Below, one piece after another: positions 3,902-7,335 of a stretch of 9,853 nt of DNA (position 1 is its first letter; each line of letters starts with the position of its first letter). The notes beneath the pieces were generated by a model. It worked only from the letters and a program-made list of their open reading frames with translations. It was not told the origin of the DNA and made no database searches. Both the position numbers and the translations under genes were made by a program. Origin of the DNA: a bacterium (GTDB lineage: Bacteria; Desulfobacterota; DSWW01); assembly GCA_030609865.1 (NCBI GenBank), contig JAUWSZ010000040.1:1-9853 (forward strand), given 5' to 3'.

Positions 3902-4660
3902 TCAATGGCCGTACAGGTTCATCAACCAGGAGAACGGGGCCGAGATCCTGCCGAATGCCGTGCCCAGGATCCTCGCCGTCCTTCCGTACCTGCCCACGCC
4001 CGCAGGCGGGTTGAGCGGCGGAAACAGGGGTTCTCCCCGGTTGCCGGCACCGGACAGCCTCTCCTCAAATCGAAGCAACGCATCCAGCTGTCCTTCTTCC
4101 CGGATCGGATAGAAAGGGCATTCTCTCGTCTCGTCTTCCCTGCACTGCTTGACGAGTTCCTCTTCAGGCACGCAAGGGGTTCTCATCCTCATCGGGCAGT
4201 TCCCTGCCGTGCAGATTCCATTCGTCACGCCCATAATGCAGACACAGCCGGGAATACAGGTCTCCGGGCCGCCCACGTGTTCCCAGTCCACATCACGCCC
4301 CCCTGCACCGAGCGTATCACAGAACGGAACGACCCTCTTCGTCCCATCCGTGATCCAAAACAGGGTCTTGACCCCCATGGAACAGCTGCACACCCCGATC
4401 GCATCCGACTTCCTGATTTTCCTCCTGAACTGACGAAGCCTTTGATACAGGATCGAGTGCGCACACAAGGCCGCCACCCAGCACGCATCGACCTGGATGC
4501 CCCTTTCTTGCAGGAATCCCTCGAGCTTCTCGAAAGCAGGATCGGCCGTCGCCCCTGAGCTTGCCCCACACCATCCACACCGAAGGATGAAGATACGCTC
4601 CACACCGTCCAGCAACGCGGACAGCTCATCTTGAGGCTTGTATTCTATCTTGATGGACAC
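3902..4660 (-). CDS. Cysteine-rich MTHFR_C (MetV)-like protein, paralogue 2
   Basis: This 252-residue protein starts at GTG 4660-4658 with only a weak purine run (GAAAG) upstream. It resembles the MTHFR_C/MetV family: a strand ending in RCGWC (Cys28, Cys31), a KSDAIGVCSCSMGVKTL segment matching the family's ADAI-acGvGvQ motif, then a Cys cluster at 135/139/141, a GICTAGNC motif (Cys150, Cys155) and a TPC (Cys163) matching the GPC of the family, plus Cys173 and Cys181. It has fifteen cysteines in all. MetV is the small metal-binding subunit of acetogen-type methylene-tetrahydrofolate reductase, but no metF is next to it here. The role is therefore unknown; metal (zinc or Fe-S) binding is inferred. 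It is the last gene of the operon led by the MerB-like selenoprotein gene, 26 bp after its paralogue. Confidence 0.72.
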   Translation of the reverse strand: MSIKIEYKPQDELSALLDGVERIFILRCGWCGASSGATADPAFEKLEGFLQERGIQVDACWVAALCAHSILYQRLRQFRRKIRKSDAIGVCSCSMGVKTLFWITDGTKRVVPFCDTLGAGGRDVDWEHVGGPETCIPGCVCIMGVTNGICTAGNCPMRMRTPCVPEEELVKQCREDETRECPFYPIREEGQLDALLRFEERLSGAGNRGEPLFPPLNPPAGVGRYGRTARILGTAFGRISAPFSWLMNLYGH

Positions 4661-4686
4661 GTTGTTCTTTCAGAGGACGAAGCCCC

Positions 4687-5478
4687 TCAGAACCGGATCT
4701 TCCGAACCGGGGGCTGATCCGTCACCGCACTCATCACGGCAAAAGGCCTGGACAAGCGCGCGAACACGGCGGCAATCGAATGCTTCGACCACTTTCGCTC
4801 GCCCTTGAGCGGCCTGGAGATCTCAAACAGGGGCCTTCGCGGCTCCCCCTCCTGTTGCTTTCTTCTCAGGGTTCGTTCATACGAGACGAGTCTGTCCAGC
4901 AGCTTCTTCTCCTTGACGAAGAAGAAGGGGCAGTCTCGTGCAGGATCCTCCCTGCATTCCTTTACGATCTCTTCCTCCCTCCTGCACGGGACCCGCAGGC
5001 CCTGCACGCAATTGCCGACCGTGCAGATCCCGTCCGTGAATCCCAGCACACATTGGCCACAAGCGGAACACGAGGAGAGGAGTGGGTTGTCTACTTCGTT
5101 GTAGTAGGCACAGCAATAGATGCTGCTCAAGTCGAGGAAGGGAATGACTCGCTTCTTCCGCTTCATGACGAGGTGCACACTGTTCACACCCAGGGGGCAG
5201 CTCACCATGCCGATCGCATCGGCCTGGTCGATTTTCTTTCCGAACTGCTCGATGCTTGCCTGCATGCCATAGGGGACGCAGGGGCAGAAGACGATGCGGT
5301 TTCCGGTTACCTCGATCCCCTTGTCCAAGAGGTAGCCCTCGAGTCTGCGCTTCGCCTCGGCGCTGTGCTCCCACCAGAGAGCAGGGCAGATCCCGCACCT
5401 CAGGAGAAAAAGGCGTTCCACCCCCTGCAGGGACTCTTCGATCTCTTCCCTGGGTTTGTATCGAGTGAGCGCGGGCAT
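4687..5478 (-). CDS. Cysteine-rich MTHFR_C (MetV)-like protein, paralogue 1
   Basis: This 263-residue protein starts at ATG 5478-5476, only 5 bp after the stop of the MerB-like gene. It has a weak AGG before it, so translational coupling is likely. It shares the plan of its paralogue: RCGIC (Cys28, Cys31), ADAIGMVSCPLGVNSV, a GICTVGNC motif (Cys152, Cys157), and VPC (165) followed by Cys175 and Cys183. Its middle cluster is more regular, CSACGQC (Cys137, 140, 143), and it adds CPC (65, 67) and CC (122-123), fifteen Cys in total. This is enough for one or more Fe-S clusters or zinc sites. The C-terminal ~60 residues are basic and less conserved between the two copies. Function is unknown; a metal-binding or electron/methyl-transfer partner for the selenoprotein is inference. 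Confidence 0.74.
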   Translation of the reverse strand: MPALTRYKPREEIEESLQGVERLFLLRCGICPALWWEHSAEAKRRLEGYLLDKGIEVTGNRIVFCPCVPYGMQASIEQFGKKIDQADAIGMVSCPLGVNSVHLVMKRKKRVIPFLDLSSIYCCAYYNEVDNPLLSSCSACGQCVLGFTDGICTVGNCVQGLRVPCRREEEIVKECREDPARDCPFFFVKEKKLLDRLVSYERTLRRKQQEGEPRRPLFEISRPLKGERKWSKHSIAAVFARLSRPFAVMSAVTDQPPVRKIRF

Positions 5479-5483
5479 CGTGC

Positions 5484-6236
5484 CTACATCAGCCCCAGCT
5501 TCATCGCGATGGAGAAGCCGAACTTCTCCAACGGCGACATCCGCCAGTGATCTCCCGCGTCAGGCAGCTTGTCGAGTGTCGCGAGCATGTCGGCCATGTA
5601 CTCGCCCATGTGGGAGACATAGTCCGGCTTGCTTCGGTTCGTGAAGTATGGGCCGGAGAAGAGCTGCATCAAAGAATCGAGGGAGATGATCCCGCCCTTC
5701 CGCTTCTCCTGGAAGCCCTCCCATCTGCGAAGATGTTCTTCCGACCGGAAGAAGAGCATCGTGCTTCAGGAGTAAGGGATGTTGAACATCCATCTTCCGA
5801 TCGGGACGGAGACATAGCCGATCAGCCCCTTCGGCTCCTCCAACTCGATTTTTCCGTCCTTCACCTCGACCCGTATGGGCTCACCGCAATCGAGGCACAC
5901 AGAATCGATTTGCACCGTCTTACCGGGAAAGAGCCAGCAGACCGCCAGCGATTCAAAAGCTCACTGGCCGAACCACTTCTGTTCCCCGTCGATCGTCAAG
6001 CGGTAATGGGTCGGGAGGTTGTTGAAGGGGGCAAAGGAAATGACGGTGTCGCCCTTCGGGTAGAGCCAACCCGCAAAACCGCGGATTGAAAAGAGCTTGT
6101 GGAGCGCTGCCCGGCCTTCCCTGGGCGACACGCCCAGCTCGGCCGCGATCTCGGTGTAGTGTGGCGCCTGCCCCGTGTCCATCATTCCTTTCATGATGAC
6201 ACTGTATGTCCTGTCCAACAGACTCGGTTCAGCCAT
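5484..6236 (-). CDS. MerB-like organomercurial lyase homologue with two selenocysteines (UGA at 5963-5961 and 5768-5766)
   Basis: Read through two in-frame TGAs, one frame gives a 250-residue protein from ATG 6236 (AGGAGGAGG 9 nt upstream) to TAG 5486-5484. Residues about 10-60 form a winged-helix like that of MerB. FAPFNNLPTHYRL (68-80) matches the MerB PF-x-PTPHRV strand. The first TGA (Sec92) aligns with catalytic Cys96, in U-A-F-E against C-A-L-D, so Glu95 replaces Asp99. Cys114 aligns with MerB Cys117. The second TGA (Sec157) aligns with catalytic Cys159, seen as U-S-T-M-L-F-F against C-C-H-V-H-F-F. The spacing between the two is 65 residues against 63. Homology continues through both TGAs, and each has a SECIS hairpin. 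MerB protonolyses carbon-mercury bonds in the cytoplasm; the substrate here is unknown. A 75-residue C-terminal tail extends beyond typical MerB. A pseudogene is the alternative but is unlikely. Confidence 0.88.
5736..5753 (-). promoter_or_regulatory. Bacterial SECIS element 2 (after Sec157 codon)
   Basis: After the UGA at 5768-5766, nt 13-30 form a perfect 7-bp stem, UUCUUCC (5753-5747) with GGAAGAA (5742-5736). It is capped by the tetraloop GGUC (5746-5743). Stem start, loop position (nt 20-23) and loop sequence agree with SECIS element 1 and with the E. coli fdhF element. The stem lies inside coding sequence, as bacterial SECIS elements do. Confidence 0.85.
5933..5949 (-). promoter_or_regulatory. 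Bacterial SECIS element 1 (after Sec92 codon)
   Basis: In the mRNA, after the UGA at 5963-5961, nt 12-28 form a 6-bp stem: GCUGGC (5949-5944) with GCUGGC (5938-5933), including two G-U wobbles. The apical loop is GGUCU (5943-5939). Three more pairs below an internal loop are possible. The E. coli fdhF SECIS has a GGUCU loop at almost the same distance (nt 19-23 there, 18-22 here). The loop G and U are the SelB-contacting bases in fdhF. Confidence 0.8.
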
Positions 6237-6288
6237 AGAGTTCTTCCTCCTCCTACTGAAATGGTAGAGTTTCCCCCTGTCAGCGTAT

Positions 6289-6434: not shown

Positions 6435-6920
6435 CTAGCTACCTGGCTTGTTTCGCTTGTGTTGTTCCCTTATCGCAGCGAGGGCATCGGAGAGGACGGG
6501 CAATACGAGCTTGTCTTTCTGCCTTCCAGTTGCCTCCTTGCTCTTGATGATTCTCTCCAGCGACAGGACGGGTACTTTCAACCTGCCCAAGGGAATGCGA
6601 AGGCAATACTTGATTTCCTCTTCGAACGTCTCAAGCCCATGCATGTGCATCACTATGTCAAACAGATTGACGGATTTGCCCTCAAACATCGGGGGATTCA
6701 TTCCTGCAGGGGGGACGTAAGAGCCTTGGACCTTCTTCAAGGCACTTTCAATGCCTGGATCCTTTAGATCCCTGAACCACAGATCCACGTCCTGCGTCAC
6801 GATGGGTGCGCCCTGCAGTGCCGCTGCAGAAAGCCCTACAATCATGAAGTCAACTTTCTGACGGACCAGTTCCCTGAGGAAGTCAGCCTCTTGATCGGTG
6901 AAAATCAAATCTTTGGCCAC
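6435..6920 (-). CDS. Nucleotidyltransferase-fold protein, probable toxin of an HTH/NTase pair
   Basis: This 161-residue protein starts at GTG 6920-6918, with GGAGGT (6935-6930) 9 nt before it. It carries the minimal nucleotidyltransferase core: the VGLSAAAL helix (Gly29, Ser31), DVD at Asp44/Asp46 as the metal pair, and a candidate third carboxylate Asp88 in NLFDIV. The C-terminal VLSLERIIKSKEATGR-QKD segment is typical of small NTases of the AbiEii/MNT-related group (DUF6036-like). It overlaps the end of the upstream HTH gene by 38 bp, a layout typical of toxin-antitoxin modules. Such toxins transfer nucleotides to RNA or protein targets. A housekeeping role cannot be excluded. Confidence 0.75.
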   Translation of the reverse strand: MAKDLIFTDQEADFLRELVRQKVDFMIVGLSAAALQGAPIVTQDVDLWFRDLKDPGIESALKKVQGSYVPPAGMNPPMFEGKSVNLFDIVMHMHGLETFEEEIKYCLRIPLGRLKVPVLSLERIIKSKEATGRQKDKLVLPVLSDALAAIREQHKRNKPGS

Positions 6921-7263
6921 GTGTCAATGACCTCCGGAGCCGTTCGATGGGTTTTTCCTGTAACAGGAGCAGGGTATGTCTTACGTTTTCCCGATCCGCT
7001 TGTTTGTGCTGGCTCAACACCCGTTCCAACTCTTCCAACAGCGACCTGAACCTGTCTGCCTCGAGGCTTGCTTCGTCCATAAAGGAAGATGGTTTTACGC
7101 CCAGCCGACCTGCAATGGCGATGATGGAGTTGGGCAGCACGGTGTCTTTGCGGGCCAGAGAATAGTACGCGTTCTTGCTGACGCCGGCCTCTTGCAAGAG
7201 TTGATTCAATGAGAGCCTCTTGTTCCGGCACAATCTCTTCAGTTTTTTGCTTGAGATTTTCAT
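6883..7263 (-). CDS. Xre-type HTH regulator, probable antitoxin/autoregulator
   Basis: This 126-residue protein starts at ATG 7263-7261. An open frame extends to 7305, but that extension would cover the operator and promoter, so the internal Met is chosen. Residues about 8-63 form an Xre/Cro helix-turn-helix (SLNQLLQEAGVSKNAYYSLAR with a following helix and GVKPSSFMDE). Residues 66-115 are strongly charged helix, probably a coiled-coil dimerisation or toxin-binding part. It lies at the head of a two-gene operon, with its 3' end overlapping the NTase start. The perfect palindrome just upstream is its likely binding site. Confidence 0.75.
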   Translation of the reverse strand: MKISSKKLKRLCRNKRLSLNQLLQEAGVSKNAYYSLARKDTVLPNSIIAIAGRLGVKPSSFMDEASLEADRFRSLLEELERVLSQHKQADRENVRHTLLLLQEKPIERLRRSLTRGQRFDFHRSRG

Positions 7264-7269
7264 ACCCGA

Positions 7270-7299
7270 ATAGTACCAAAATTTGGTACTACTTGTCAA
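7270..7299 (-). promoter_or_regulatory. Promoter of the HTH/NTase operon with overlapping operator, probably leaderless
   Basis: On the - strand a perfect TTGACA (7299-7294) is followed after 18 bp by TACTAT (7275-7270). A perfect inverted repeat with arm TAGTACCAAA and a one-base centre covers 7271-7291, filling the spacer and most of the -10 box, so a bound dimer would block RNA polymerase. The ATG begins 7 nt after the -10 box, where transcription should start. There is no room for a Shine-Dalgarno, which suggests leaderless translation. Confidence 0.75.
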
Positions 7300-7335
7300 G
7301 AACATGTCGCCGAAATCACGTCCGTATACGCTACC

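What the first reader, a model, noticed from the sequence alone, without database searches (positions are those of the whole stretch)
5484..6236. MerB-family protein whose two catalytic cysteines are both encoded by UGA (selenocysteine)
Two short ORFs (5961-6236, 5484-5759) and the non-ORF stretch between them join in one frame. The only interruptions are two TGAs, and MerB-like sequence is continuous across both. The TGAs align with Cys96 and Cys159, the residues that bind and cleave the Hg-C bond in MerB. A random pseudogene would not place exactly two stops, both TGA, on exactly the two catalytic positions. Selenium binds mercury much more tightly than sulfur, which fits an organometal lyase. 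Standard annotation would miss this gene. I cannot check whether Sec-MerB has already been reported.
Basis: partly seen in the sequence, partly recalled or inferred. Interest (0 to 1): 0.96.

Follow-up and report, generated by a model that had tools for sequence, protein, structure and literature searches.

The report
Double-selenocysteine MerB organomercury lyase family
A bacterial gene related to MerB, the enzyme that cuts mercury-carbon bonds, has a UGA codon at both catalytic cysteine positions, and so do many of its relatives; both codons are predicted to encode selenocysteine, which would make this a selenium-based branch of methylmercury breakdown that ordinary gene finding likely misses.

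Summary
Window 5484-6236 (-) is one 250-codon MerB frame broken only by TGA at codons 92 and 157, aligned with MerB Cys96 and Cys159. Of 80 homologous loci read, 80 have TGA at 157; at 92, 58 have TGA and 22 Cys. In a separate sample of 297 genomes of one phylum, all 20 strong matches carry two TGAs. SECIS-like hairpins (GGUC-type loop 17-19 nt after UGA) follow both codons, with compensatory changes; the site-92 hairpin decays where the codon is Cys. SelB or a strong tRNA-Sec was found in 48 of 49 relatives' genomes checked for both; the window's own genome is not held. A distant MerB lineage in 8 of 49 genomes also carries two TGAs. A single-Sec MerB-like protein, SaoL ('CU' motif), is in print; I saw no mention of Sec at both catalytic sites, but two key papers were not readable. 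HgcA accompanies the gene more often than expected, MerA rarely. Selenocysteine at both sites is very likely; lyase activity on methylmercury is inferred. Verdict: a real, new variant of a known kind.

The parts
5484..6236 (-). MerB-family gene, 250 codons, ATG 6234-6236 to TAG 5484-5486, two in-frame UGA
5961..5963 (-). UGA codon 92, aligned with MerB Cys96; predicted selenocysteine
   Evidence: TGA in 58 of 80 loci, TGC 19, TGT 3
5933..5949 (-). Predicted SECIS hairpin for UGA 92: 6 bp stem, GGUCU loop starting 17 nt after the UGA
5766..5768 (-). UGA codon 157, aligned with MerB Cys159; predicted selenocysteine
   Evidence: TGA in 80 of 80 loci
5736..5753 (-). Predicted SECIS hairpin for UGA 157: 7 bp stem, GGUC loop starting 19 nt after the UGA
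6246..6254 (-). Shine-Dalgarno-like AGGAGGAGG, 9 nt before the ATG
   Evidence: read from the sequence
5952..5954 (-). Glu95 codon, at the place of MerB Asp99
   Evidence: E95 invariant in the 16 rows of A1; Glu or Asp in 13 of 13 further places that align there (L114 and L116 counted once, L103 does not reach it)
4687..5478 (-). Downstream ORF, starts 5 nt after the MerB stop, DUF5981 (methylene-THF reductase C-terminal type), Cys-rich; likely co-transcribed here
   Evidence: no relative among the neighbouring ORFs of the other loci
3902..4660 (-). Second downstream ORF, 37% identical paralogue of 4687-5478

Best explanation
The gene is a MerB-family gene whose two catalytic cysteine positions are both UGA codons, each followed by a conserved SECIS-like hairpin; SelB would read both as selenocysteine, likely giving a double-selenocysteine lyase that cleaves mercury-carbon bonds. 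Shown: the frame, the two UGAs, their conservation against Cys in relatives, the hairpins with compensatory changes, the predicted MerB fold, and Sec machinery in relatives' genomes. Inferred: insertion of Sec in this organism, and the reaction. Proposed mechanism: the Sec pair takes the place of Cys96/Cys159, a selenolate attacks the Hg of an organomercurial such as methylmercury, Glu95 (place of Asp99) helps protonate the leaving carbon, and Hg(II) is held as a bis-selenolate until thiols or a partner take it. Because 46 of 49 relatives' genomes have no MerA over its cut-off and HgcA is enriched, the likely role is demethylation or turnover of methylmercury in anaerobes, not a classical mer resistance operon.
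For: Read-through frame is MerB; clear fold matches are MerB or MerB2 only. TGA at 157 in 80 of 80 loci; at 92 TGA 58 and Cys 22 of 80. All 20 places at 165 bits or more among 297 genomes of one phylum have two TGAs. Of the 120 database homologues listed (223 found), 45 have W at both sites (as table-4 calling of TGA would give; their DNA was not seen), 71 have Cys at 92 and end exactly before 157, 2 have C/C, 1 S/end, 1 W/P. Distant relatives have Cys codons at 92 in 11 of 11; at 157, 8 of 11 have Cys, one TGA, one Cys followed by TGA, one does not align. Hairpins: synonymous-codon shuffles give mean z -2.13 at UGA157 (58 genes), against -0.39 to +0.11 six or more codons away; pairs 17-32 to 22-27 form in 80 of 80 rows, GGUC loop in 74 of 80; CG to UA double changes. 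At site 92 all six pairs form in 56 of 59 TGA rows but 9 of 22 Cys rows; GC to CG double change in 3 rows. selB in 71 of 78 genomes; selB over cut-off or tRNA-Sec at 58+ bits in 48 of 49. A second MerB lineage with two TGAs in 8 of 49 genomes, with a GGUC hairpin after the second UGA in 6 of 6 read. hgcA in 12 of 16 carriers against 74 of 281 others, Fisher p 1.2e-4; MerA over cut-off in 3 of 49.
Against: No genome is held for the window, so its own sel genes are untested. selB base rates are high in these phyla (263 of 297; 149 of 246), so selB presence discriminates little; carrier G087 showed no selB at E 1e-70 and G009 neither selB over cut-off nor a strong tRNA-Sec. The synonymous-shuffle signal at site 92 is weak (mean z -0.47 to -0.94, strongest four codons upstream of the UGA), and Cys92 genes have a similar mean there but without a local dip; in some TGA92 rows the lowest-energy fold uses another loop. 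The hgcA link is not corrected for kinship or genome size and falls to p 0.006 (7 of 10 against 74 of 281) without six genomes already known; two partial copies, G097 (hgcA present) and G225 (absent), were not counted as carriers. 19 of 49 locus genomes have no HgcA over the cut-off, two of these with strong fragments. No mer operon or widely conserved partner lies beside the gene. Glu in place of Asp99 and the lack of any assay leave the substrate open. Hg(II) bound by two selenolates may be released poorly.
Confidence: 0.72

Rival explanations
1. It is a double-selenocysteine MerB homologue, but not a mercury lyase: it acts on another organometal or organometalloid, or is a metal-binding or metallochaperone protein, as proposed for SAO (Sec-assisted organometallic) proteins.
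For: No mer operon beside it; MerA over cut-off in only 3 of 49 genomes; Glu instead of Asp99 in the near family; five Dehalococcoidia-type loci lie beside a gene that looks like a molybdate-type ABC transporter subunit (named by recall); SaoL is called an organometallic lyase, without a named substrate in the passages seen.
Against: Clear fold matches are MerB/MerB2 only; HgcA enrichment points to mercury; both catalytic positions are kept as chalcogen positions.
Confidence: 0.25
2. It is a pseudogene or a split gene: two stops have broken a MerB gene, or the first 91 codons are a separate protein.
For: Two stop codons in one frame; gene calls end many relatives at such a codon (71 of 120 listed homologues end before 157).
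Against: The same two stops, both TGA, in 58 of 80 loci at 42-75% identity, with no other stop inside the aligned frame of these 58; all 20 strong matches in a phylum sample; Cys at the same positions in other relatives; selection on structure just downstream.
Confidence: 0.02
3. TGA is read as tryptophan or glycine by a reassigned genetic code.
For: Database gene calls show W at both positions in 45 of 120 listed homologues.
Against: 7 of 9 neighbouring window ORFs stop at TGA; where relatives do not have TGA at these sites the codon is Cys, not Trp or Gly; SECIS-like hairpins; carriers span several phyla.
Confidence: 0.02

Closest known systems
SaoL (NCBIfam NF040728), MerB-like organometallic lyase of the SAO system, a selenoprotein
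   Same: MerB-like and Sec-containing; in PMC13188914 Table 1 (section 7, parts 1 and 2 of 3 read, plus passages) and, with the same accession, as 'alkylmercury lyase MerB-like protein' in PMC9312934 (passages)
   Different: SaoL is listed with one Sec in a 'CU' motif; here there are two UGA, preceded by Gln91 and Ser156, one at each catalytic site. The window protein scores 43.7 bits against a cut-off of 140; 0 of 49 carrier genomes have a match over the SaoL cut-off
MerB organomercurial lyase (PF03243; PDB 3f0o, 1s6l) and MerB2 (5c17)
   Same: Fold, and the two catalytic positions
   Different: Cys96 and Cys159 are UGA, Asp99 is Glu; no mer operon
'Organic mercuric lyase MerB2' in a list of predicted selenoproteins (PMC7435645, passage of a table)
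   Same: A Sec-containing MerB-type protein was predicted before
   Different: The passage gives no sequence, motif or Sec count, so identity with this family cannot be decided
Double-Sec metal-binding proteins, e.g. MbdU (NF045648) and the UxxU metal-binding protein (NF041115), in PMC13188914 Table 1
   Same: Two Sec in one bacterial metal-related protein
   Different: Other NCBIfam models; neither was among the models matched by the window protein

Membership tests
MerB (Pfam PF03243) | Match over the curated cut-off | tested here: met
   76.6 bits against 27
MerB (Pfam PF03243) | MerB fold | tested here: met
MerB (Pfam PF03243) | Catalytic Cys96, Asp99, Cys159 | tested here: not met
   UGA, Glu, UGA at these places; the positions are kept but the residues differ, so I call it a MerB-superfamily variant, not MerB proper
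MerB (NCBIfam NF009710, NF033555) | Curated cut-off score | tested here: not met
   38.8 of 193 and 34.7 of 200 bits
SaoL (NF040728) | Curated cut-off of 140 bits | tested here: not met
   43.7 bits; four other members 32.6 to 43.0 and the second lineage's L085 51.3
SaoL (NF040728) | One Sec in a CU motif | tested here: not met
   Two UGA; preceding residues Gln91 and Ser156
Bacterial selenoprotein | In-frame UGA at a position that is Cys in homologues | tested here: met
Bacterial selenoprotein | SECIS-like hairpin just downstream of the UGA | tested here: met
   strong at UGA157, weaker at UGA92; no Rfam family reached its gathering score
Bacterial selenoprotein | SelB and tRNA-Sec in the source genome | not testable with these tools
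   no genome held for the window; relatives:
Bacterial selenoprotein | Selenium in the protein | not testable with these tools
   needs 75Se or mass spectrometry

The most novel reading that the evidence does not exclude
A widespread selenium-based class of methylmercury demethylases exists, with selenocysteine at both mercury-binding positions, working without MerA in anaerobes that often also methylate mercury through HgcA, and overlooked by surveys that define MerB by Cys96 and Cys159.
Probability: 0.45. Interest if true: 0.93.

Novelty: new variant of a known kind. Interest (0 to 1): 0.8.

Why it matters
MerB is the textbook route of biological methylmercury breakdown and rests on a Cys pair. 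A family in which both are UGA, with Cys/Sec and Cys/Cys relatives, is a natural series for asking what selenium does in Hg-C bond cleavage and Hg(II) release. At least one published screen built its MerB model from sequences chosen on conserved Cys96 and Cys159 (PMC9948709, passage), and gene calling stops at codon 92 or 157, so such screens may well miss this family. If the proteins are active, genomic estimates of methylmercury demethylation potential in anoxic sediments, and in mercury methylators themselves, are too low.

Tried and rejected
Viral contigs: 42 pattern matches, none a relative. Plasmids: 8 records, identities 23-28%, not examined beyond the listing. Rfam: no family at gathering score; two chance-level hits, E 0.37 and 7.4, around the second UGA. 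SaoL as the identity was rejected by score and motif. Conserved operon partner: clusters of neighbouring ORFs reached at most 10 of 81 loci, and no cluster of 5 or more loci held a window ORF; window neighbours had hits only in L040, to thiolases. The tRNA-Sec cut-off alone is loose (5 of 14 controls pass), so I used 58 bits. MerA as partner: 3 of 49 over cut-off, 1 of 14 controls; weaker hits there are probably related flavoproteins. selB as a discriminating control in an actinobacterial phylum failed because the base rate is 149 of 246. PDB match for ORF 4687-5478: none at E 1. No distance between residues 92 and 157 in the model was measured; the tools gave no coordinates. Of the weaker matches, G201 and G297 (under 21 bits) were not read.

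Literature: searches (listings, with abstracts' beginnings). Term look-ups without a MerB or lyase hit: PMC5029168 and PMC12013277 and PMC9402790 (MerB and mercury terms); in PMC2398784 only mercury transport entries. Haft and Gwadz 2023 and Haft and Tolstoy 2025 are not held; I read nothing of them, so a double-Sec MerB could be in them.

Full report
1. The observation. Window 5484-6236 on the minus strand is a single frame of 250 codons from ATG to TAG with two internal stops, TGA at codons 92 and 157. A Shine-Dalgarno-like AGGAGGAGG stands 9 nt before the ATG. The joined protein is MerB by Pfam (76.6 bits, cut-off 27); the two ORFs that annotation would give match nothing at E 0.01. Against MerB and MerB2 chains in the PDB the two TGAs fall on the catalytic cysteines, Cys96 and Cys159 (the roles of Cys96, Asp99 and Cys159 are stated in PMC8261052, passages). 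TGA is an ordinary stop codon in this window: 7 of 9 neighbouring ORFs end in it.

2. Conservation. A profile scan of one genome per species found 117 relatives, of which the best 80 were kept. Read through, 80 of 80 have TGA at position 157; at 92 there are 58 TGA, 19 TGC and 3 TGT. The only other stop inside the aligned frame is a TAG at codon 11 of L076. One of the two scan patterns includes residue 92 as Cys or Trp, so one search is not a neutral sample for that site. A neutral one is: P0001 against 297 genomes drawn from the phylum of G019. There, 20 places in 16 genomes score 165 bits or more, and all 20 have two TGAs (one also has a TAA). Eleven lower-scoring places from that sample (27-38% identity) have Cys codons at 92 in 11 of 11; at 157, 8 have Cys codons, L111 has TGA, L112 has Cys followed by TGA, and L113 does not align there. 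Two partial copies were also read: L103 ends before 92, and the G225 pieces (L114, L116) have TGA at 92 and do not align at 157. G201 and G297 were not read. In the protein database 120 homologues are listed of 223 found: W/W 45, C/end 71, C/C 2, S/end 1, W/P 1. The W/W records fit table-4 gene calling of TGA, though their DNA was not seen; the C/end records stop exactly before 157. On a tree of 80 rows (L076 left out) the codon-92 state needs at least 7 changes, 5 forced by well-supported branches, so Sec and Cys have likely exchanged repeatedly at 92 while 157 stayed TGA in all 80 loci.

3. SECIS elements. After UGA157 comes UUCC-GGUC-GGAA within a 7 bp stem, loop 19 nt after the UGA. Pairs 17-32 to 22-27 form in 80 of 80 rows and the loop is GGUC in 74 of 80 (L044 left out). 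The outer pair covaries (CG 50, UA 21, UG 2, unpaired 5 of 78 distinct rows), and the 21-28 pair changes from CG to UA in two Alphaproteobacterial rows with Glu changed to Lys. Folding energy against synonymous-codon shuffles has mean z -2.13 at UGA157 in TGA92 genes (58), against -0.39 to +0.11 six or more codons away, and -1.52 in Cys92 genes (22), against -0.16 to -0.89. After UGA92 the hairpin has 6 bp and a GGUCU-type loop 17 nt away; all six pairs form in 56 of 59 TGA rows and in 9 of 22 Cys rows, and the loop reads GGUY in 43 of 59 and 7 of 22. Three rows swap GC for CG. The shuffle signal at 92 is weak, and in some TGA92 rows the lowest-energy fold uses another loop. The decay of the hairpin where the codon is Cys is the natural control.

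4. Machinery. The window's genome is not held. selB passes the cut-off in 43 of 49 and 28 of 29 genomes of the relatives (L050 not held; L074 and L076 share a genome). tRNA-Sec at 58 bits or more is in 40 of 49; the Rfam cut-off itself is passed by 42 of 49 but also by 5 of 14 controls. 48 of 49 have selB over cut-off or a strong tRNA-Sec; G009 has neither. Base rates are high (263 of 297; 149 of 246), so this shows that the machinery is there, not that it is linked to the gene. Of the 16 carriers in the phylum sample 15 have selB at E 1e-70; G087 does not.

6. A second lineage. Searching the same 49 genomes with a distant MerB protein from G019 found 8 genomes with a gene of its kind carrying two TGAs (L091 to L098). 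It keeps U-A-x-D, that is Sec with the Asp99 equivalent, matches Pfam MerB at 46.3 bits, and in 6 of 6 read by script has a UUCUUCU-GGUC-AGAAGAA type hairpin after the second UGA (L095 and L098 were not caught by the script's pattern). So two UGAs at the catalytic sites occur in two MerB branches. L083 and L111 are further MerB relatives with Cys at the first site and TGA at the second.

7. Function. No mer operon or widely conserved neighbour accompanies the gene; in the window two Cys-rich ORFs follow, the first 5 nt after the stop and of DUF5981 type. MerA passes its cut-off in 3 of 49 carriers. HgcA, the mercury-methylation corrinoid protein, passes in 30 of 49. In the phylum sample HgcA at E 1e-60 is in 12 of 16 carriers against 74 of 281 others (p 1.2e-4), or 7 of 10 against 74 of 281 without six genomes already known (p 0.006). 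Kinship and genome size are not corrected, and two partial copies (G097 with HgcA, G225 without) were not counted as carriers. From this and the MerB fold I infer an organomercury lyase using a Sec pair, most likely for methylmercury made in or near the cell. Other organometals remain possible.

8. Known or new. PMC13188914 (section 7, parts 1 and 2 of 3 read, which hold Table 1) states 119 selenoprotein families and subfamilies and lists one MerB-type entry, SaoL, one Sec, motif CU. PMC9312934 lists a MerB-like selenoprotein with the same accession, and PMC7435645 lists 'MerB2' (passages). The present family fails the SaoL score and motif, and no NCBIfam model passes its cut-off for the members tried. 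L112 has a CU motif at the second catalytic site, which suggests that SaoL's Sec may lie there, but no SaoL sequence was seen. Seven searches, seen as listings, and the passages opened showed no mention of Sec at both sites; the two papers most likely to bear on it are not held.

Noticed in passing
L091 to L098; L085:1384-2130: A second, distant MerB lineage with UGA at both catalytic positions, in 8 of 49 carrier genomes.
   Followed up: partly
L083, L111, L112: Further MerB relatives with Cys at the first site and TGA at or next to the second; L112 reads 'CU', like the motif listed for SaoL.
   Followed up: partly
window 3902-5478: Two Cys-rich paralogues (37% identity) downstream of the gene, the first matching DUF5981 of methylene-THF reductase C-terminal type; no relative among neighbouring ORFs of the other loci.
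   Followed up: partly
protein records with W/W, e.g. P0002 to P0013: 45 of 120 listed homologues carry Trp at both Sec sites, apparently called with genetic code 4; such records hide selenoproteins.
   Followed up: no
L054 to L058: In five Chloroflexota (Dehalococcoidia-type) loci the gene lies just before a ModA-like substrate-binding ORF (named from sequence look and recall, not by a family search).
   Followed up: no
L081: A Cys/Cys MerB in G007 next to an ORF that looks like an ABC transporter substrate-binding protein (recall).
   Followed up: no
window 6435-7305: Two overlapping ORFs without any Pfam match at E 0.01, by look a nucleotidyltransferase-like and a helix-turn-helix-like protein (recall).
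   Followed up: no
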